Notes under the pieces: generated by a model
What the model saw: only the letters and a program-made list of their open reading frames with translations
What the model was told of the DNA's origin: nothing
Databases searched by the model: none
NCBI GenBank assembly: GCA_016742275.1
Contig: JACVCD010000010.1
Span: forward strand, 62,001 to 126,000
DNA length: 64,000 bases
Reading direction: 5' to 3'
Origin: Gemmatimonadaceae bacterium
GTDB taxonomy: Bacteria; Gemmatimonadota; Gemmatimonadetes; Gemmatimonadales; Gemmatimonadaceae
Translations under genes and position numbers: made by a program
Shown here: positions 37,726 to 47,426 of the stretch, one piece after another
How the letters are laid out: each line of letters starts with the position of its first letter
Position numbering within the stretch: position 1 is the stretch's first letter

Positions 37726-39615
37726 CTACGGCGTAATCGTCACATCACGCTCGGCCAATCCGCCACGCGTACTCGTGAACTTGGCCTTGGCCGCAACGCT
37801 CTGCCCCTCCGGCACACGGACACGGACCGTGATCACACGGGACTCGTAGCCGCCAAGCCAAAAGTCCTTCGCCCGCGGCCCCACCGTACGTACGCCAGTA
37901 CCAGTGACTGTGAGCAGGTCCGACGGCACCGCATGCACACGCTTGGCCTGCTCCAGTGCCGTGGGAATGCGTCCGGCGTTGCGCACCGTCACCCGCACTT
38001 CATGAGTGGCGGAATCGGCGGCGGCGCCCTTCACTCGCGCGGTCTGCACGTTGGTGATCTCCACCTTGGGCAAGTCCATGGCCATCGTGAGATTGAACAT
38101 GGCCTGATTGCGCGCCCAGCGTTCGAGATCTTCAGCTGGCGGATTCTGTGACCAGAACTTGGGATCGGCTCCGCCGACTTCTACCTCACCAAGCTCCGGG
38201 TGCATGACCTTCGTCCACGCCTGATAACCACGTCCACCAAAACGCTCGTCGTTGTAGCGCAGCACTTCGTACTGATCGATGCGACCATCGTTGTTGTAGT
38301 CCTTCTCGCGGCCACCATTCCACAGCTCATCGCCGTACCACACCTGACCCATCTGGAAGTAGCCGAAGTCCGGTCCATGACCAAACAGCGGCACTGGACG
38401 CTCCTGGCCCTTGGGCTGACCGCGTGTGCCGTAGGTCCAGTACACATCACCAGCAAGACCATAGTTCGTGAACGAGTTGCCCACTGAGTCATAGTGCTGC
38501 AGCAACTTGAGATCGGTCGCGAACATGCATTCGGCGGCCAGACAGGTGCTGGGGCCTCGCAGGTGCATGGGCACTGATGTGTCCATGGAGTTGGTCACGC
38601 TGATGTTCGGATGCGTGGCCTGCCAGAGATACACCGCACGCGTTTCTGGTTCGGAGAGCGGATACTCACCTGCACCAAATTGCGTATGACCGCGTCCCGT
38701 GGATTCGGCCATCGGCTTCCAGTTGTACGGGTAGTTGCGATGCAGATCGAGTCCACCGACACCGTCTTCGTTGTACTGGCCATCCTTGTCGTTGTCGATG
38801 CCTTCGGGATACACGAGATACGTGCCACGCCCCGCGCCGACCTGACGCATGAGACGACCCTTGGGGTCGAGCGAATCCACGACGTGCGTACCCTTGCCGG
38901 CGCCGACGAACTTGCGCATCTGGCGAATGAAACCATCACCGTCGAGATCTTCACCCGGATCTTCGTCGAACAACCCGTCGCCATCATTGTCCACCGGACG
39001 CACCGATGACCGATTGGCCTGCGCCGTGAGCTTGTACATGTCCGCGCCATCGGGATTGTTGTTGGGGCGGATGTACAGTGTTTTTTCGTCGAGCAGCTTC
39101 GTTATGGCGGCGTCGGTGCCGTACTTGGACAGCACATGCCACGTCAACCACAACACACTTTCACTGGACGTGATTTCGCCCGAGTGACGTCCACCCTCAA
39201 AGAAGGCCGCGGGCTTGCTGGTGTGCGTGCCGGTCTTCTTGTTGGTGATGATGAGCTGCCAGATGGGCTGTCCACCAAATGACGTGCCGGCTTGCACCAT
39301 GTCCACAAGCTCGGGCTTTTCCTTCGCCCATCGTGTCATCCAGTAATTGAGCTCGGCCGTGGTGTGATAGTGTTCGAAATCCATCACATCCCACTGCTTG
39401 GCGCGCAATTGCGGATAGTTCACCAGCGCAAATGTGGACTGTCCATCACGCTGACCGGGAATGGTGAGCACCTTGCGCACGGTATCGCGCCGCGCCGTGC
39501 CACTGCGCGCCGGTCCTTCATCAGACTGCGCGCCAAGCGATGGAGCCATCACCATGGTCGCCAGTACGGACAACGCGGTGGTTGTGCGCAGAAGCGCGGA
39601 ACAGGAAGCACGCAT
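37726..39615 (-). CDS. Exported M14-family zinc carboxypeptidase-like protein
   Basis: A 629-residue protein starting at 39615 with a signal peptide ending SLGAQS. The zinc-binding HxxE appears as GGRHSGEITSSE, followed by DLHRNYPYNW with the later His ligand region. DGDG-type calcium-binding-like stretches (DNDGDGLFDEDPGEDLDGDGFI) are inserted between. The C-terminal part (from about residue 510) is beta-rich and Ig-like. Expected role: cleavage of C-terminal residues of peptides outside the cytoplasm. Monocistronic by context. Confidence 0.88.
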   Translation of the reverse strand: MRASCSALLRTTTALSVLATMVMAPSLGAQSDEGPARSGTARRDTVRKVLTIPGQRDGQSTFALVNYPQLRAKQWDVMDFEHYHTTAELNYWMTRWAKEKPELVDMVQAGTSFGGQPIWQLIITNKKTGTHTSKPAAFFEGGRHSGEITSSESVLWLTWHVLSKYGTDAAITKLLDEKTLYIRPNNNPDGADMYKLTAQANRSSVRPVDNDGDGLFDEDPGEDLDGDGFIRQMRKFVGAGKGTHVVDSLDPKGRLMRQVGAGRGTYLVYPEGIDNDKDGQYNEDGVGGLDLHRNYPYNWKPMAESTGRGHTQFGAGEYPLSEPETRAVYLWQATHPNISVTNSMDTSVPMHLRGPSTCLAAECMFATDLKLLQHYDSVGNSFTNYGLAGDVYWTYGTRGQPKGQERPVPLFGHGPDFGYFQMGQVWYGDELWNGGREKDYNNDGRIDQYEVLRYNDERFGGRGYQAWTKVMHPELGEVEVGGADPKFWSQNPPAEDLERWARNQAMFNLTMAMDLPKVEITNVQTARVKGAAADSATHEVRVTVRNAGRIPTALEQAKRVHAVPSDLLTVTGTGVRTVGPRAKDFWLGGYESRVITVRVRVPEGQSVAAKAKFTSTRGGLAERDVTITP

Positions 39616-39666
39616 CAGACAGGAGGGTGGAGTGAGGGAACAGTAGATTCGCCGCAATGGCGCGAC

Positions 39667-40574: not shown

Positions 40575-43127
40575 TCAGCTATCGTCCACAGGCGTGATCG
40601 TTCGAATCTCAGGCTTTCTTCGGCGCATCCACTCTGCACCATAGTGGTCGAATTCCTTGGGCACACCTTCCTTTGCCCAGTTTAGAGCCTCACGCGTCCC
40701 GCCATCTCCACCGGGATCACGGAGGTCTCTCACGAGCCCCACAATGACATCTGCCCGCTGCACCAGATAGGCGTTCACACGACGGAGGGCATCAGCGCGC
40801 ATCGTTTTGTCAGACATCCAGGTGTCAAGAGTGACTCCAGGCTGCTGCAGGTCCACCGTCGTACTGCTCCCACTCTTCAGGAAGGGTGCCAGGCCATCCT
40901 GATAGTTCGCGACTGCGCGTAGATCCTCCACGATATCTGCGGTTCTTGGAGGACCGTACAATGACCAGATCCCCCCTTGTGGTACACACTCAAGTGCGAA
41001 ATGCAGCATGGCGTGACGAGGCTGAGCCTCGACGACTATCAGGCGATAAGGGATGTCGCGCGTCTCCAGCGCTTCTATCAGCACTTCTGAGCCAATCGTA
41101 TCAGCCCCTGGTGCCAGCGGGGTCAGTATCGAAACGAACTCGATCGTCTCTCCACGTCGACCAAATGCGTTGAGAACATCTGGAATCTCCTGAATCAAAC
41201 GCCGTTTCGACGCTTCGGACACTTCGATGTGCCCGATCACTGCAATTCGCGTTTCGCGGACGATCGTTGGTCGGGCAGTTCCTTTTGCCAACACAAATGC
41301 CGCTGCGGCCTGCAGCTGTTCATTGTCATGGTGTCTGATGGCAGGAGGCAACGCGCTGTATGGCGTCCCCAGTAAATCATGATGACGCGTCGCATCGTTG
41401 CGCACACGTGCCTGGCGCCAACCATCGAGTCGGAGATCCGTCTCCCATGCCTGATGTTCGAGCATGGCAAGCGCATCAATCTGTTCCTGCTCCAACGCAA
41501 AGACATCGCGATTGGCAGTCAGTGCTCCCGGTAGGATGACATTCCCCGCGCTATACAACTTGGATGGCAGGTGATCCACGGCGCGGCGATTCCTTGCCTT
41601 GACCGTATTCGGGAGGTCTTGCCAATCCGCAAGTGTTGATCGCGCTCCACGATCCTGGATCTTATCCGTCGCTCTATGCCAGGCTTCGTGAAATTGTCGA
41701 GCCTGCGCATCACGGACTTCCACATACTCATCAAGTGATGCGATCTCCTGAATGAGCCCCACGGGTATGATCCGATCCGCCAATGCGCGTGTCGGTGGCT
41801 GTTGGACGAAGCTGACAGCTACATCATTTTGTGCTCGCACAAAAATCGGGGCTGACCAGCGGTTCTCACTACGCTTGAGCGACCGAAGCCGCAACGCCGT
41901 TGCCACGGCATGGCTGTCATCCTCGGCCGACACGAGTATGGCAGTGACCGATGGCGCGGGACCGGGTTCTATCTGGCGTAGTCTTGCCGCCTCCGGCAGG
42001 TTGCTTTGCTCATCGATCGGCCAGATGTGCAAATCAACCAGCGCTGGCGCATCACTACTTTCGTCTGCACTCCACTCCACGGTCCCACTATCTGCATGAA
42101 TGCAGGACTTGGCCAGCATGGCGGGACGCATGGCCGCGAGACGTCGCCGTGTGGCGTCCGGATTCGCACTCAGCATATCGATCCGAGGTATGCCGAAATC
42201 GCTGAAGTCCTTGTAGGGCGACAATCGTACAAAATGCTCCATGGCCTCGAGCGCAAAGCCCGTATGACCCACAACAACCAGATGTTGCCGACGCAGTCCA
42301 CGGAGCTCGGCAAGCTCGCCCATCACATGGGATTCAAACATGCGGAGTACAGCCAGTCGATCTTCGTTGAATGCTACCACCCGATGTCGAGTGTCCGGGT
42401 CGGTGAATCGCCGCTCGGCATTCAAGGAACGCGCCAGCGAAGGATTGTCGATACGGACAATGATGCGCGTGCGCTGGCGACGGCTACGCGTGGTCTGGTC
42501 CATCACGGCTCGCCGAATCGCAAGATTCTCGTCGTCATCACCACCGAGAATCAGCACAGTCCTGGCATTCGCCACATTTGCATTGACCAACGTTTCCGCG
42601 TTCTTGGCATCGCCCACGATGGCATAGGTGCGTGATGAGCGCGTCGCAACAGGCCAGATATCATCGGAGCGATCAATCAACACCAGCGGCTCATCAGGGG
42701 AGATCGTGCGCAGTAGCGCTCGCCCGCGCTTGCCAATGCCGATCACTACCGTATGATCGGAAAGCAAACTGACAGTCGTCGCCCACCACGATTGCGCAAT
42801 ACGATCCCAGGCGAACAACAGCACGCCGCCCACGGACGCCACGGACGTCAGCAATCGTGCAATAGAGAATGTGATCGACTCTGGTGCATCTCCCGCAGTT
42901 TCGAACACCAGTAGCGCGAGTGCATCGGAAGCTGCGCCCAATACATGCTTCCATAGGCCGGCCGAAGCCTGTTCCGGATCGTCTCCGATTGAATGAGACA
43001 GATACGCCATGAAGCCCAGAAGCGTGCCGATCGCAGCCGTTGCGATCGTAAGGAGAATCAACCGCCGCCGCAATGGATCTCCATCGCGGATCCGGCGCCG
43101 AACCACTTGCAAGGATTCCATAGTCAT
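40575..43127 (-). CDS. Membrane RCK/TrkA-N, RyR and SLOG-type multidomain protein
   Basis: An 850-residue protein. Two hydrophobic segments (about 22-43 and 88-107) flank a 44-residue linker, as in two-helix channels, but no TVGYG-like filter is present. A TrkA-N/RCK domain follows (VIGIGKRGRAL, VLIDRSDD, IVGDAKNAETL), then a second RCK-like stretch (HLVVVGHTGFALEAM, about 270). A RyR-type segment (about 540-620) has LEHQAWETDLRLDGW. The C-terminus (about 620-840) is SLOG-like: AVIGHIE, LAPGADT, and GGTREALNWA. SLOG and RyR domains are predicted to bind nucleotide-derived ligands. I start at 43127; an in-frame start at 43163 is less likely. Divergent from a TIR gene. Confidence 0.8.
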   Translation of the reverse strand: MTMESLQVVRRRIRDGDPLRRRLILLTIATAAIGTLLGFMAYLSHSIGDDPEQASAGLWKHVLGAASDALALLVFETAGDAPESITFSIARLLTSVASVGGVLLFAWDRIAQSWWATTVSLLSDHTVVIGIGKRGRALLRTISPDEPLVLIDRSDDIWPVATRSSRTYAIVGDAKNAETLVNANVANARTVLILGGDDDENLAIRRAVMDQTTRSRRQRTRIIVRIDNPSLARSLNAERRFTDPDTRHRVVAFNEDRLAVLRMFESHVMGELAELRGLRRQHLVVVGHTGFALEAMEHFVRLSPYKDFSDFGIPRIDMLSANPDATRRRLAAMRPAMLAKSCIHADSGTVEWSADESSDAPALVDLHIWPIDEQSNLPEAARLRQIEPGPAPSVTAILVSAEDDSHAVATALRLRSLKRSENRWSAPIFVRAQNDVAVSFVQQPPTRALADRIIPVGLIQEIASLDEYVEVRDAQARQFHEAWHRATDKIQDRGARSTLADWQDLPNTVKARNRRAVDHLPSKLYSAGNVILPGALTANRDVFALEQEQIDALAMLEHQAWETDLRLDGWRQARVRNDATRHHDLLGTPYSALPPAIRHHDNEQLQAAAAFVLAKGTARPTIVRETRIAVIGHIEVSEASKRRLIQEIPDVLNAFGRRGETIEFVSILTPLAPGADTIGSEVLIEALETRDIPYRLIVVEAQPRHAMLHFALECVPQGGIWSLYGPPRTADIVEDLRAVANYQDGLAPFLKSGSSTTVDLQQPGVTLDTWMSDKTMRADALRRVNAYLVQRADVIVGLVRDLRDPGGDGGTREALNWAKEGVPKEFDHYGAEWMRRRKPEIRTITPVDDS

Positions 43128-43145
43128 GCTGCCAATTCTCCGCCC

Positions 43146-43184
43146 GACCGGATGCCGTGGCAAGACCAGATGCCTGATCCGGTC
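43146..43184. promoter_or_regulatory. Inverted repeat in the TIR / RCK-RyR-SLOG divergent promoter
   Basis: GACCGGAT (43146-43153) and ATCCGGTC (43177-43184) form a perfect dyad separated by 23 bases within the 95-base region between the two starts. It may be an operator shared by both genes. AGGA at 43212-43215 is the likely ribosome site for the TIR gene. Confidence 0.5.
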
Positions 43185-43222
43185 CGACCTTGCCGAAGTC
43201 TCCTGAAGCGGTAGGATCGTTC

Positions 43223-44284
43223 ATGCCTGAATCCAAATTCTTTATTTCTTACAGTCGCGGTGAAAGTGGGTATGTCGCCGCCACGATTCACAACCGTCTG
43301 GCCGAGCACTTCGGGTCGGCATACACCTTCCTCGATGTGCATGCCATTCCAGCCGGTATGGACTTCCGGAAGGCACTAACGGACGGTGTCTCGTCCTGCC
43401 GCGCCATGGTCGTGCTAATGGACGAACAGTGGGTCGCGCAGCGGCGGGAACGCGACGCTTTGCACGACAATGGAACGCCGGATTGGATTCGATTTGAAGT
43501 AGAGCAGGCGCTCCAGCGCGACATCCCCGTCATACCCGTATTGCTCGACCGGGCACTTCCTCCTCGGCCTGAGGATCTGCCATCGTCTCTCAAAGATCTC
43601 GCGTTTCGCAACGCCATCGAGATACGCTCCGGATCAGATTTCGATCACCATCTCGAGCGATTGGTGCAAGCGCTTCATGACACCGGTGGTCTCGGACCGG
43701 CGATCAAACCCGGCGGACGACGTCTGGGTCGCTCCCTCACCGTTGGTGCCATGGCAGTCGCCGGCGCATTCGGCGGCTACTCGTGGCTTATACGCCCGGC
43801 ACCCGATGCGTGGAGCTACTCGGTTGGGCAAACCCAAGTGGGCATGCGTGTGTCCCTCACGCATCCTGCCTCGTGGGTATCGGCGACTGGTCCTGCCATT
43901 CCCCTCAGCTTTCAATCGGCAGCCATCAACCCAAGCGCTGGTGGTCTGGCCTTACAGTTGCCTGACAAGCGTGGCGGCATAGTAGCCGGCATCGACGACT
44001 TTGGCCCGATGCACTCGATCGACTCCACTCTGAGCATCTGGCGTGCTCGATACACTGTTGGCACGATCGCTGTTGATCCAGCGCGCGAAATCTCTGGAGA
44101 TGTCTACCAGGCCATTCTACGTCCGCAGAATGGACGAGACGCGGCCGGTGTGTTGCATGTGGTAGTGCAACGAACTCCGGCAGGCGACCTGGTTCTGTGG
44201 CGTGCTGTGCTTGGTGATCCTGCGCGCGAACGTGAAACATTGCGCATCACCGTGGACTCTCTGCAGGTGCTCGCCGACAAGTAG
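43223..44284 (+). CDS. Membrane-anchored TIR-domain protein
   Basis: A 353-residue protein. Residues 1-150 are a TIR domain: KFFISYSRGESGY, FLDVHAIPAG (BB-loop region), SCRAMVVLMDEQW, and WIRFEVEQAL, where Glu92 or Glu94 is the candidate NADase catalytic residue, then IPVIPVLL. A single membrane helix lies at about 171-191, followed by an approximately 160-residue beta-rich domain with Trp-rich start (DAWSYSVGQ) that should lie outside the cytoplasm and looks faintly like PsbP/DUF1795-type lipoproteins. TIR enzymes cleave NAD or make cyclic ADP-ribose variants. It is divergent from the RCK-RyR-SLOG gene and ends 3 bases from a convergent operon. Confidence 0.88.
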   Translation: MPESKFFISYSRGESGYVAATIHNRLAEHFGSAYTFLDVHAIPAGMDFRKALTDGVSSCRAMVVLMDEQWVAQRRERDALHDNGTPDWIRFEVEQALQRDIPVIPVLLDRALPPRPEDLPSSLKDLAFRNAIEIRSGSDFDHHLERLVQALHDTGGLGPAIKPGGRRLGRSLTVGAMAVAGAFGGYSWLIRPAPDAWSYSVGQTQVGMRVSLTHPASWVSATGPAIPLSFQSAAINPSAGGLALQLPDKRGGIVAGIDDFGPMHSIDSTLSIWRARYTVGTIAVDPAREISGDVYQAILRPQNGRDAAGVLHVVVQRTPAGDLVLWRAVLGDPARERETLRITVDSLQVLADK

Positions 44285-44287
44285 CGA

Positions 44288-45148
44288 CTAGAGCACGTCC
44301 AGCTCGCGCACGACGTCGGTATTCGCGATCCGCCGAGCGTTGAAGTAGGCCACCACATCCGTTCGCGCACGATCAATGGCGGCGGACCGGGCCGGCGGCA
44401 CGGAGGTTGGTGGCGGAACAGCCTGGGGTACCGTTTGAGGCGCAGTCTTGGGCGGTGTGGCTGTCTTGCGCTCCCCCATCAGCGCCACCACATCGTCCAT
44501 GGCAAGACTGTGGCAGGTTGTACTTGCCATCGGAACGGAGAACAACAATGCCAATGCATCCGATCGCCGCCCCGCACGCGCATGTGCGCCCGCTTCGCGT
44601 CGAATGGCCGTGCACTGACGTTCATAAAACGACACCAGTCGTTCACGGGTGCTCGTGGCAAAACTCTGCAGCTCAGGGCTATCGCCTCGTAGCGCACTGA
44701 TGGCCTGTATGATTGCCCGTTCTTCGGTTTGGCCGATCCCGGATCGTTGGAGCACAACCTGCTGAATGGGCACGCGTGTCGTAGCGTCCCGTACCTCCAG
44801 TGCGATCTCAACTTTGCTCGCAACTTGTCGCTGCATGGTGCCATCGAGCGTGGTCGATTCGAGTACGGTCACCCGGGGAACCATGAGGAATCGCGTGCGA
44901 ACGCCAACACCAGACAATCCGCCGGAGGTCGCGATCTGCGCGAGGCGTGTCGTCAGCAGGTCCCGCAGACCAGGTGTAATGATCGGATTGTCCTCTGGCA
45001 CTGCGACGCCCACGAGAATTCCACCCAGATCGTCGGCTGTGATCTGTGATCGTAGACCGCCTTGAGCAATGGCAGGTGCCGCGCTTATTGCCAAGACCGA
45101 GAGAATAGTGGCGAAGCGCAAACGACATCCCTTACTGGATATCGACAT
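44288..45148 (-). CDS. Exported protein of envelope operon, function unknown
   Basis: A 286-residue protein with a signal peptide (about residues 1-28, ending AIAQGG). The middle has alternating strands and helices (GVGVRTRFLMVPRVTVLES, KVEIALEVRDATTRVPIQ) and a C-terminal Pro-rich linker (TPPKTAPQ...) before a short helical end. The ATG at 45148 lies 17 bases inside the preceding gene. It is last of a three-gene operon with CsgG-like and related proteins. No enzyme motif is visible. Confidence 0.65.
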   Translation of the reverse strand: MSISSKGCRLRFATILSVLAISAAPAIAQGGLRSQITADDLGGILVGVAVPEDNPIITPGLRDLLTTRLAQIATSGGLSGVGVRTRFLMVPRVTVLESTTLDGTMQRQVASKVEIALEVRDATTRVPIQQVVLQRSGIGQTEERAIIQAISALRGDSPELQSFATSTRERLVSFYERQCTAIRREAGAHARAGRRSDALALLFSVPMASTTCHSLAMDDVVALMGERKTATPPKTAPQTVPQAVPPPTSVPPARSAAIDRARTDVVAYFNARRIANTDVVRELDVL

Positions 45149-46043
45149 AAATCGCACCATTCGAGACCGACGAAGTGGCACGGACACCGCGTGCTTCGAG
45201 TGCAGACACCAGGCGCGAACCGACCCGACGCGGCGACAAGGGCGTTCCATCCGCTTCACGAAGTGGCATACGCAGTTCTGAGATCTGCAGTACGGTTTCG
45301 GTGGCCGTCCCGATATTGAGAGCACCCTGCACCGCGAGCTTCGTGGCCCAATCTTCAACGAGATCGGCAATGGTGGCAGCGCCGCCCTGCGGTTTCGATG
45401 ACAATCGCGTACTGCTACCGCTTGCCACACGCAGTGTAAGAGACACCGGCGCACCCGCCCGTTGCATGGCGTCGTACTTGTTGCGGAACGACGCCAGGAA
45501 CTCCTCGGTTACGCGTTCAATCGCCTGCTCCACATGCATCGAGACATCTGGCTCACGATTCCGCGTGGATCGTTCCGTGCCCGTAGCCAGAGAGAGGCCG
45601 TTGGCCGTAAGGTGCGAGTCGAGCAAAACCGTCACACTGGTCAGGCCTTCGCTCACCGACGGTCGATAGGCAACCGTTACGAACGCGTCGGCCTTGTACT
45701 GTTCGAAGAGTCGGTCACGGAAATCCCGTTCGGATTCCATTGCCACCGCTCCATCGCGTTTCATCGCCGCCAGCGCGCCATGAAAATCTATGGTCGGAAG
45801 ACTGCAGGCATCGAACGCCTTTTTCACTTGCGAAACGGCAAGTTGCCTATTGAAATCCGACTCGAGAATCGTGCGGATGTCTTCGCCTTCCTTCGTGAAC
45901 GGAATGACGATGATACGCGGAGCCGTACTTCCAGGCAGCGTAGCGGCACATGGACCAGTCCCCGCCTGTGCCGTCGCAATGTGCATTGGCGCCATGAGCG
46001 CGCCAATGCACACCATCAAAGCTTCGGCCAAACGAATTCTCAC
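45132..46043 (-). CDS. Exported protein of envelope operon, CsgG/FlgO-like features
   Basis: A 303-residue protein starting at a GTG (46043) that overlaps the upstream stop by 4 bases (GTGA). A signal peptide ends near HIATAQAG. The segment APRIIVIPFTKEGEDIRTILESDFNRQL and KADAFVTVAYRP reads like the N-terminal alpha/beta part of envelope proteins that list IVVxPF and VTG motifs. The C-terminal half is unassigned. It overlaps the next gene by 17 bases, so all three are tightly coupled. Confidence 0.65.
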   Translation of the reverse strand: MRIRLAEALMVCIGALMAPMHIATAQAGTGPCAATLPGSTAPRIIVIPFTKEGEDIRTILESDFNRQLAVSQVKKAFDACSLPTIDFHGALAAMKRDGAVAMESERDFRDRLFEQYKADAFVTVAYRPSVSEGLTSVTVLLDSHLTANGLSLATGTERSTRNREPDVSMHVEQAIERVTEEFLASFRNKYDAMQRAGAPVSLTLRVASGSSTRLSSKPQGGAATIADLVEDWATKLAVQGALNIGTATETVLQISELRMPLREADGTPLSPRRVGSRLVSALEARGVRATSSVSNGAIYVDIQ

Positions 46044-47218
46044 GGCGTCTTGGCCTTGAGACGTTCCGCCGTAGCGTTGGCCCACTCCCTCACGAGGTGC
46101 TTCGCATCCAGCAATGCCCAGTCGAGCACATCGGCTTCGGTTTCCTTGCACTTCTGACCGAGTCGCTCGACCTGCAATTTGGCCTTGCGTAGACCAATTT
46201 CTCGCCCGGTTTCGGGATTCGTGCTTGGATAGGAAGCCGCAAAGGTTTTGGATGACACCGCAAGCTTGGATTGCACATCACCCATTTGCACGGTGAACCC
46301 GAGCGATGCCCGATGGGCCATGCAGCCGTCGGAGTTTCTGGTGCTGGTTACACTCGCGCGCTCCACCGAACCCACGACGATATAACGTGCATTGACCGAC
46401 ACATTGTCCTTGAGAATGACCGGGCTCTTGAAATTCGCGATACCCTTCGTGCGATCCATCTCGGCGAGCAGCTTCTCATCATTCGTTCGATCCGATACCT
46501 GCCACAATTCCGAGTCAACGAAGGATTGCAGGAGTCGCGTACCAAGGGCGACTTGAACGGGACCTGACTCGGTATCGTAACGTTGCGCCTTGAGTAGCCC
46601 GCCCGCAGCAAACGGATAGATGGCCACACTACCGACTGGCTTTGGTGCCACCTTCGGAGCCGCAGCTGGAGCGGCTTTTGCTACCACCTTCTTCACCGGT
46701 GGCGAAATCATCGCCTTGATGATGTCGTCTGGAATCTTTGCGGTCTTGAGATTTACGAGTCCCGCTGCAGACACATCAAACGCCGGAGGAGCCATCTCCA
46801 TCTTCGCGAGGATAAGCGATTTCGGGACCTTCTTGTTCACCATCTGGATGACCGCGTCGTTGTTGAGCGACTCGTTCATCCCTTCAAGGGAAGCCGTGGC
46901 CGCGCCATTCTCACGCGCTGCTGTGGCGACCTTGATCATCTCCTTGATGATGTTCTGATCCACCTTGTTGTCGAGCAGCGAGATGAGACCTGTGCTGGAC
47001 AGATCAAAACCGGGTCTCGACGAATTGATCTTGCCAACGATGATGTCTTTTGAAAGCTTGCCGACCACCATCTGCGTAACGAGGTCGTTGGTCAGCAGCT
47101 CACTGCTCGCTCCTTGGGCGTGCAGGGTGACAACAGATCCTGTAGACCAAAGCGCTACAGCGCCTGCGAGCAATCGGCGCCGAATAGCCGGCGCGAATCC
47201 AGCGAGAATCGACATCAT
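46040..47218 (-). CDS. CsgG-like envelope protein with duplicated N-terminal helical repeat
   Basis: A 392-residue exported protein; AGGAG five bases before the ATG at 47218 supports the start. After the signal peptide two copies of an approximately 55-residue repeat occur (NDLVTQMVVGKLSKDIIVGKI... and NDAVIQMVNKKVPKSLILAKM..., each followed by FD(L/V)S and a KMI helix). A Lys/Ala/Pro-rich linker (about 185-215) joins them to a CsgG/curli-secretion-like domain (VAIYPFAAGG, LGTRLLQSFVDSELWQVSDR, ARYIVVGSVERA). First gene of the envelope operon. Its role could be a pore, an assembly platform or a stress sensor. Confidence 0.75.
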   Translation of the reverse strand: MMSILAGFAPAIRRRLLAGAVALWSTGSVVTLHAQGASSELLTNDLVTQMVVGKLSKDIIVGKINSSRPGFDLSSTGLISLLDNKVDQNIIKEMIKVATAARENGAATASLEGMNESLNNDAVIQMVNKKVPKSLILAKMEMAPPAFDVSAAGLVNLKTAKIPDDIIKAMISPPVKKVVAKAAPAAAPKVAPKPVGSVAIYPFAAGGLLKAQRYDTESGPVQVALGTRLLQSFVDSELWQVSDRTNDEKLLAEMDRTKGIANFKSPVILKDNVSVNARYIVVGSVERASVTSTRNSDGCMAHRASLGFTVQMGDVQSKLAVSSKTFAASYPSTNPETGREIGLRKAKLQVERLGQKCKETEADVLDWALLDAKHLVREWANATAERLKAKTP

Positions 47219-47426
47219 GCATCTCCTGCTGCCCGGCGAGCATCGCGACCACTCGGCGCGGGAACACGTGGACGTTGACATTGAAATCCGCCGTGGAGGT
47301 CGGCGGTCGCCAATACTAGCACTTCATGTGAGGGACGTCACGTTTCAGAGCAGGTATGTGATGCGGCAACTACGGTGCGAAGAAAATCCAATAGCGAGCT
47401 CAAGTATAAAGATAGGACCTTCCACA

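What the first reader, a model, noticed from the sequence alone, without database searches (positions are those of the whole stretch)
40575..44284. Divergent TIR and RCK-RyR-SLOG membrane pair: possible new Thoeris-like signalling/defence module
The sequence shows a TIR protein with a candidate catalytic Glu (WIRFEVEQAL) divergent, 95 bp apart, from a membrane protein with two channel-like helices, TrkA-N/RCK, RyR-like and SLOG-like domains. Established: Thoeris TIRs make ADP-ribose-derived messengers sensed by SLOG or macro domains, and RyR/SLOG domains were predicted as nucleotide sensors in conflict systems. Inference: the TIR makes the signal, and the RCK-RyR-SLOG protein senses it and opens or damages the membrane. 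I know of no described system with this exact effector.
Basis: partly seen in the sequence, partly recalled or inferred. Interest (0 to 1): 0.9.

Follow-up and report, generated by a model that had tools for sequence, protein, structure and literature searches.

The report
TIR beside RyR-domain ion-channel-like protein
A bacterial immune-type enzyme gene (TIR) lies next to a gene for an ion-channel-like protein that carries the same signal-binding pocket as animal ryanodine receptors, and similar pairings recur in several bacterial phyla, so bacteria may answer infection or stress by opening a channel with an NAD-derived messenger.

Summary
A TIR gene (43223-44284 +, 353 aa) is divergent, 95 bp apart, from an 850-aa protein (40575-43127 -) built as two transmembrane helices with a pore helix, tandem RCK domains, a RyR domain and a SLOG domain. 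Its model matches CASTOR/DMI1 gating rings (Z 19-21) and the GsuK channel; the TIR matches SARM1 and keeps the catalytic Glu. The RyR domain keeps all four residues with which phage RyDEP holds 3'cADPR. The exact fused protein was found nowhere else, so this exact pair is not co-conserved. The 2TM-RCK-RyR family it belongs to is widespread but rare, and TIR or DUF4062 (TIR-like NADase) genes lie within about 8 kb in 15 of 30 loci, against 0 of 20 RyR-less controls. Best reading: the TIR makes an ADP-ribose-type messenger that gates a non-K+-type channel through RyR and probably SLOG. NADase activity, ligand, gating and phage defence are inferred, not shown. It works like Thoeris but fits neither type I nor II. 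No such effector appears in PADLOC or the held literature; one key 2025 preprint on TIR systems could not be read.

The parts
40575..43127 (-). 2TM-RCK-RCK-RyR-SLOG channel-like protein, 850 aa (ATG 43127; longer TTG ORF to 43163)
42768..43076 (-). transmembrane part: TM1 (aa 18-48), pore helix (58-74), TM2 (85-120)
   Evidence: AF2 helices, (pLDDT only about 50 around the pore helix); same layout as GsuK/MthK
42888..42911 (-). putative selectivity-filter segment LVFETAGD (aa 73-80), no K+ signature TVGYG
   Evidence: alignment of 27 family members; coordinates
41748..42767 (-). tandem RCK domains (aa 121-460); GxGxxG nucleotide motif at aa 130-135
   Evidence: TrkA_N 1.7e-15; CASTOR/DMI1 gating ring Z 19-21, GsuK Z 18.7
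41280..41735 (-). RyR (R12-type) region (aa 465-616); ligand residues H558, W561, H583, D601
   Evidence: (6.7e-6), alignment to RyDEP H75/W78/H100/D117, coordinates
40620..41249 (-). SLOG domain (about aa 627-836)
   Evidence: hhalign against SLOG family A4: probability 90, E 1.7e-6
43128..43222 (.). 95-bp shared intergenic region between the divergent start codons
   Evidence: one weak sigma-70-like match on the minus strand
43223..44284 (+). TIR protein, 353 aa: TIR (aa 1-155), probable single TM (aa 172-190), C-terminal domain of unknown fold
43496..43498 (+). codon of the putative catalytic glutamate E92

Best explanation
A two-gene signalling module. The probably membrane-anchored TIR is an NADase that, when triggered, turns NAD+ into an ADP-ribose-derived messenger (a cADPR isomer is likeliest). 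The messenger binds the RyR domain, and probably the SLOG domain, on the cytosolic side of a tetrameric 2TM channel with an RCK gating ring of the CASTOR/GsuK type, and opens a pore that is not of the K+ type. Ion flow then depolarises or kills the cell, or stops growth, most likely as an abortive answer to phage. Shown here: domains, fold of the RCK part, conserved TIR Glu, conserved ligand residues of RyR, repeated linkage of 2TM-RCK-RyR genes with TIR or TIR-like NADase genes. Inferred: the NADase activity and product, the binding, the tetramer and its gating, the ion, and the defence role.
For: Linkage: TIR or DUF4062 within about 8 kb in 15/30 2TM-RCK-RyR loci against 0/20 RyR-less 2TM-RCK loci (Fisher p 8e-5, without the window 1.9e-4); TIR density in 22 of these genomes is about 64 per 92 Mb. 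Standalone RyR genes lie beside TIR genes in G034 and G295, each with one TIR_2 gene, and G337 has TIR, CsgG, 2TM-RCK-RyR and a separate RyR together. TIR- and DUF4062-linked members interleave in the tree, as expected of exchangeable NADase partners; DUF4062 are TIR-like NADases (PMC13174449). Ligand: six of eight tested phage RyR-domain proteins bind 2'cADPR/3'cADPR, two measured with nanomolar Kd (PMC13232231), and the window RyR keeps H75/W78/H100/D117 of RyDEP. Channel: CASTOR/DMI1 gating rings Z 19-21, GsuK with NAD or ADP; CASTOR also lacks TVGYG, is Ca2+-selective and needs an acidic filter residue (PMC6697748), and the family has an acidic residue there in most members. TIR: SARM1-like fold and Glu. 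SLOG is a known sensor of cADPR isomers in ThsA (PMC11204291).
Against: No activity is shown. Half of the 2TM-RCK-RyR loci have no TIR or DUF4062 in the stretch seen (several are short contigs). In phages RyR-domain proteins remove or soak up the signal, so RyR need not be a trigger. H100 is not conserved in about half of the family. No other defence gene was seen around the window pair apart from an Lhr-like helicase. Pore helix and SLOG are low-confidence in the model. TIR genes can cluster in defence islands, so linkage alone does not prove interaction.
Confidence: 0.5

Rival explanations
1. The RyR (and SLOG) part is an off-switch: it hydrolyses or soaks up the TIR product, RyDEP-fashion, and the channel is gated by something else, so the membrane protein is the brake or immunity partner of the TIR.
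For: RyDEP is a glycosidase with an H75/D117 dyad (PMC13232231), and the window keeps both as H558 and D601. NUDIX genes, often ADP-ribose hydrolases, accompany related loci.
Against: The eight tested phage homologues of RyDEP did not cleave the signals; six bind them (PMC13232231). A hydrolase would need no channel, yet RyR is fused to the gating ring in nearly every family member. D117 is N, A or C in several members.
Confidence: 0.17
2. The channel senses the fall of NAD+ or the rise of ADP-ribose or ADP through its RCK domains, as GsuK does, not through RyR; the TIR acts simply as an NAD+-depleting enzyme.
For: GsuK structures with NAD and with ADP are among the top matches; RCK1 keeps GxGxxG.
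Against: It leaves the conserved RyR pocket and the repeated presence of extra RyR and SLOG genes unexplained. RyR-less 2TM-RCK genes show no TIR linkage.
Confidence: 0.15
3. The two genes are unrelated neighbours: a housekeeping ion channel and a lone TIR.
For: The exact pair was not found elsewhere; half of the family loci lack a TIR or DUF4062 gene in view.
Against: Single TIR and single RyR gene of the genome adjacent; repeated linkage in at least five phyla with 0/20 in controls; operons with overlapping genes such as L071.
Confidence: 0.12

Closest known systems
Thoeris (types I and II: ThsB TIR with ThsA SIR2-SLOG or macro-TM effector)
   Same: TIR gene with the catalytic Glu beside an effector-like gene with an ADP-ribose-type sensor domain (SLOG here too)
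   Different: Effector is a 2TM-RCK-RyR-SLOG channel-like protein; no SIR2 or macro domain; TIR is probably membrane-anchored
CASTOR / DMI1 (POLLUX) and GsuK / MthK 2TM-RCK channels
   Same: Two-TM pore with RCK gating ring; CASTOR also lacks TVGYG and has an acidic filter residue
   Different: None of these carries RyR or SLOG domains or is known to be coupled to a TIR
RyDEP phage RyR-domain proteins (PF02026)
   Same: Same four ligand residues H, W, H, D
   Different: RyDEP is a soluble phage anti-Thoeris protein; here the domain is part of a cellular channel-like protein
Animal ryanodine receptors
   Same: RyR (R12) domain in a channel-type protein; cADPR has been implicated in RyR control
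   Different: Different pore and scaffold; 850 aa against about 5000
Swarozyc (DUF4062 TIR-like NADase) antiphage system
   Same: DUF4062 proteins stand beside 2TM-RCK-RyR genes in sibling loci
   Different: The window has a true TIR; the paper's text mentions neither RyR nor a channel

Membership tests
Thoeris type I or II | TIR protein with catalytic Glu | tested here: met
   TIR_2 1.7e-13; E92 aligned with the SARM1 catalytic Glu, invariant in six TIRs
Thoeris type I or II | Effector of SIR2-SLOG or macro-TM type | tested here: not met
   Pfam finds TrkA_N and RyR only; no PADLOC model hits any of 18 family members
Thoeris type I or II | TIR makes a cADPR-type signal that activates the effector | not testable with these tools
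   needs enzymology
Thoeris types III-VI and other TIR systems of Yirmiya et al. 2025 | Effector type of each published type | not tested
   preprint not held; NCBIfam ThcB4 matches the TIR at 36.8 bits, far below its 220-bit cut-off
2TM-RCK channel (GsuK/MthK/CASTOR group) | Two TM helices with a pore helix between | tested here: met
   AF2 helices 18-48, 58-74, 85-120, low pLDDT at the pore helix
2TM-RCK channel (GsuK/MthK/CASTOR group) | Tandem RCK gating-ring fold | tested here: met
   MtDMI1 Z 21.2, 336 aligned, rmsd 4.2; LjCASTOR Z 19; GsuK Z 18.7
2TM-RCK channel (GsuK/MthK/CASTOR group) | K+ signature TVGYG (K+ channels only) | tested here: not met
   LVFETAGD at the place; no aligned family member has TVGYG
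RyR domain (PF02026) | Profile match | tested here: inconclusive
   6.7e-6 but 26.7 bits against a 27.4 cut-off; siblings pass the cut-off
RyR domain (PF02026) | Ligand residues H75, W78, H100, D117 of RyDEP | tested here: met
   H558, W561, H583, D601
SLOG superfamily | Profile match to SLOG proteins | tested here: met
   hhalign probability 90, E 1.7e-6
SLOG superfamily | Rossmannoid SLOG fold | tested here: inconclusive
   pLDDT under 50 over most of aa 638-850

The most novel reading that the evidence does not exclude
Bacteria have a cADPR-to-RyR ion-channel pathway: a membrane-anchored TIR makes a cADPR isomer that binds the RyR domain of a CASTOR-like, possibly Ca2+-permeable 2TM-RCK channel, a prokaryotic counterpart of cADPR-ryanodine-receptor signalling and a new effector class for TIR immunity.
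Probability: 0.35. Interest if true: 0.95.

Novelty: new variant of a known kind. Interest (0 to 1): 0.8.

Why it matters
TIR enzymes and cADPR-type messengers link bacterial, plant and animal immunity, and whether cADPR acts on ryanodine receptors directly is an old open question. A small bacterial protein that joins a RyR ligand pocket to a two-helix RCK channel, encoded beside TIR or TIR-like NADases in several phyla, would make that question testable in a purified 850-aa system and would add ligand-gated ion channels to the known TIR effectors. The family is also present on Sinorhizobium and, in split form, Arcobacter plasmids, so tractable relatives exist.

Tried and rejected
Plasmid tblastn and viral-contig scans with the window protein itself found nothing. 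A combined alignment with SLOG rows was misaligned and not used. The three genes beyond the TIR (44288-47281; one DUF6175, the others CsgG-like by reading) were considered as part of the system: a DUF6175 gene cluster without TIR occurs in G015, and they are convergent with the TIR, so they are left out, although G337 has a CsgG gene between TIR and RCK-RyR. No clean empty site was found: synteny with G020 ends after the peptidase at 37726-39657. No defence island in the window by PADLOC. The C-terminal domain of the TIR protein gave no fold. The fold search listed no RyR or SLOG structures among the rows shown, because RCK hits fill the list. A C-terminal extension in the Sinorhizobium relatives looked like a possible SLOG but did not match the window SLOG by BLAST. 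The Yirmiya 2025 preprint and Burroughs 2015 could not be read.
Full report
Observation. The window is part of contig C20 of a 4.57-Mb genome, G000; its phylum is Gemmatimonadota, judged from named contigs (L063, L066) that equal genomes of the same-phylum search. It has the two divergent genes as described. I take ATG 43127 (-) and ATG 43223 (+) as starts; they are 95 bp apart. The genome has one TIR_2 gene and one RyR gene, and they are these neighbours.

The TIR protein. Pfam TIR_2 1.7e-13 and a PADLOC ThsB model at 1.2e-6, SARM1 by sequence at 1.3e-4. The AlphaFold2 model has a fair TIR over residues 1-155 and matches SARM1, C. elegans TIR-1, SPARTA and AbTir. Glu92 aligns with the catalytic Glu of SARM1 and is invariant among six TIRs, five of them from sibling loci. 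A probable TM helix (aa 172-190, hydropathy only 1.43) with Arg before it suggests N-in, C-out. The C-terminal 160 residues have no assigned fold. Of the 13 other TIR proteins linked to RCK-RyR genes, nine have one clear TM helix after the TIR, which suggests receptor-like TIRs; this rests on hydropathy only.

The membrane protein. TrkA_N 1.7e-15; RyR 6.7e-6, slightly under the Pfam cut-off. The model (mean pLDDT 64.7) shows TM1, a short helix where a pore helix is expected, TM2, two RCK Rossmann domains, the helical RyR region and a poorly modelled C-terminus. Foldseek puts GsuK first (E 1.1e-10), then TrkA, MthK and Slo1; VIA-align puts the MtDMI1 and LjCASTOR gating rings first (Z 21.2 and 19.3) and GsuK next (18.7). 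CASTOR is Ca2+-selective, lacks TVGYG and depends on an acidic residue in its filter ADSGNHA (PMC6697748). In 27 aligned family members no TVGYG occurs; many have QLFTLESG or a close form, most have an acidic residue there, and the window has LVFETAGD. RyR-less 2TM-RCK proteins of Chloroflexota lack TVGYG too, so this is a feature of a wider group. That the pore passes Ca2+ or other cations is inference.

The RyR pocket. A 2026 preprint shows that phage RyR-domain proteins bind 2'cADPR and 3'cADPR, and that RyDEP contacts the ligand through H75, W78, H100 and D117 (PMC13232231). I fetched RyDEP (DyoEdafos gp78), confirmed those residues by number, and aligned it: the window protein has H558, W561, H583 and D601 at the four places. 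H75 is kept in all but one of the family, W78 and D117 mostly, H100 in about half.

The SLOG part. SLOG proteins of the YspA type that stand beside RyR genes in L072, L074, L075 and L076, and SLOG heads of membrane proteins in L057 and L067, align among themselves and match the window C-terminus with hhalign probability 90 and E 1.7e-6. Separate genes elsewhere and a fusion here support a functional link of RyR and SLOG; L061 has another RyR-SLOG fusion without the channel.

Survey. Close relatives of the full protein are absent from 60 related genomes and 394 others of the phylum sample. The 2TM-RCK-RyR family was found in a scan of genome contigs (25 loci, not all with RCK) and by profile in 5/301 genomes of the Chloroflexota sample, 2/195 of the Verrucomicrobiota sample and 4/199 of the Planctomycetota sample (the last also has one RyR-only hit). 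Neighbours were annotated by own HMMs and by Pfam. TIR or DUF4062 genes occur in 15/30 such loci, TIR in 10; in 20 control loci of RyR-less 2TM-RCK genes from the Chloroflexota search there are none (Fisher p 8e-5, 1.9e-4 without the window). Caveats: my TIR model was trained partly on these loci, though Pfam confirms nearly all of the TIRs; controls come from one phylum; some loci are on short contigs. DUF4062 was shown in 2026 to be a TIR-like NADase family that defends against phage (PMC13174449). In the tree the TIR-linked and DUF4062-linked members interleave; many deep branches are weak, and the window sits on a long branch nearest the Rhizobium terricola protein, which is beside a DUF4062-STAND gene.

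Recurring companions are RelA/SpoT-TPR-LSDAT-RyR proteins, NUDIX hydrolases, second RyR genes and SLOG-TM genes. An Arcobacter plasmid has a compact TrkA_N, RyR, DUF4062 set next to a type I restriction subunit and an integrase. Sinorhizobium conjugative plasmids have the channel gene behind an AAA-TPR gene whose upstream in-frame extension reads like DUF4062 by eye only, with a SLOG gene nearby.

Mechanism. The simplest account is a TIR signal acting on RyR (and SLOG) at the gating ring of a channel. Shown: architecture, conserved residues, linkage. Inferred: enzyme product, binding, gating, ion, purpose. I give 0.85 that the TIR and the channel protein act together, about 0.65 that the RyR part binds an ADP-ribose-type product, and 0.5 for the whole account. 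The rivals are an off-switch role of RyR, gating through RCK by NAD+ or ADP, and unrelated neighbours.

Known or new. PADLOC has no model that hits any of 18 members; NCBIfam sees only TrkA-type matches far below cut-offs. No held paper found pairs TIR with RyR or RCK in a channel. From memory, Burroughs et al. 2015 predicted TIR, SLOG and related domains as nucleotide-centred conflict systems; that paper is not held. The Yirmiya 2025 preprint on TIR systems, cited by held papers, is not held and is the main risk to novelty. I therefore rate it a new variant of a known kind.

Noticed in passing
L045:5086-8028 and L044:6681-9075: Standalone RyR gene, a membrane protein with weak SLATT_1 similarity and a multi-TM TIR gene in a row: a second kind of TIR-RyR system without RCK.
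   Followed up: partly
L047:4466-8000 and L042:5431-8832: TIR-TM genes related to the window TIR beside SLOG-TM proteins with weak SLATT or DUF4231 similarity and no RyR.
   Followed up: partly
L040:7489-12250, L046:3569-6599, L060:7800-17525, L071, L073: RelA/SpoT-TPR-LSDAT-RyR protein, often with a NUDIX hydrolase, next to 2TM-RCK-RyR genes: alarmone-synthase-like, SLOG and RyR domains in one protein.
   Followed up: partly
L146:6985-10708 (Arcobacter plasmid CP146529.1): Three-gene set TrkA_N protein, RyR protein, DUF4062 protein beside a type I restriction subunit and an integrase; looks like a split, mobile version of the system.
   Followed up: partly
L144, L145, L147 (Sinorhizobium conjugative plasmids): 780-aa 2TM-RCK-RyR-like protein overlapping an AAA-TPR gene that may begin with an unannotated DUF4062-like domain; SLOG gene nearby; genetically tractable hosts.
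   Followed up: partly
window 44288-47281 (-): Three genes in a row, one DUF6175 (6.9e-36), the others CsgG-like by reading only, convergent with the TIR; a DUF6175 cluster without TIR exists in G015.
   Followed up: partly
L119-L138: A common Chloroflexota group of about 350-aa 2TM-RCK proteins that also lack the K+ filter signature; function unknown.
   Followed up: no
phage records MT836850.1 and MT837259.1: RyR-domain reading frames 44-50% identical to the bacterial standalone RyR of L045 in unannotated faecal phage records; possible RyDEP-like anti-TIR proteins.
   Followed up: no
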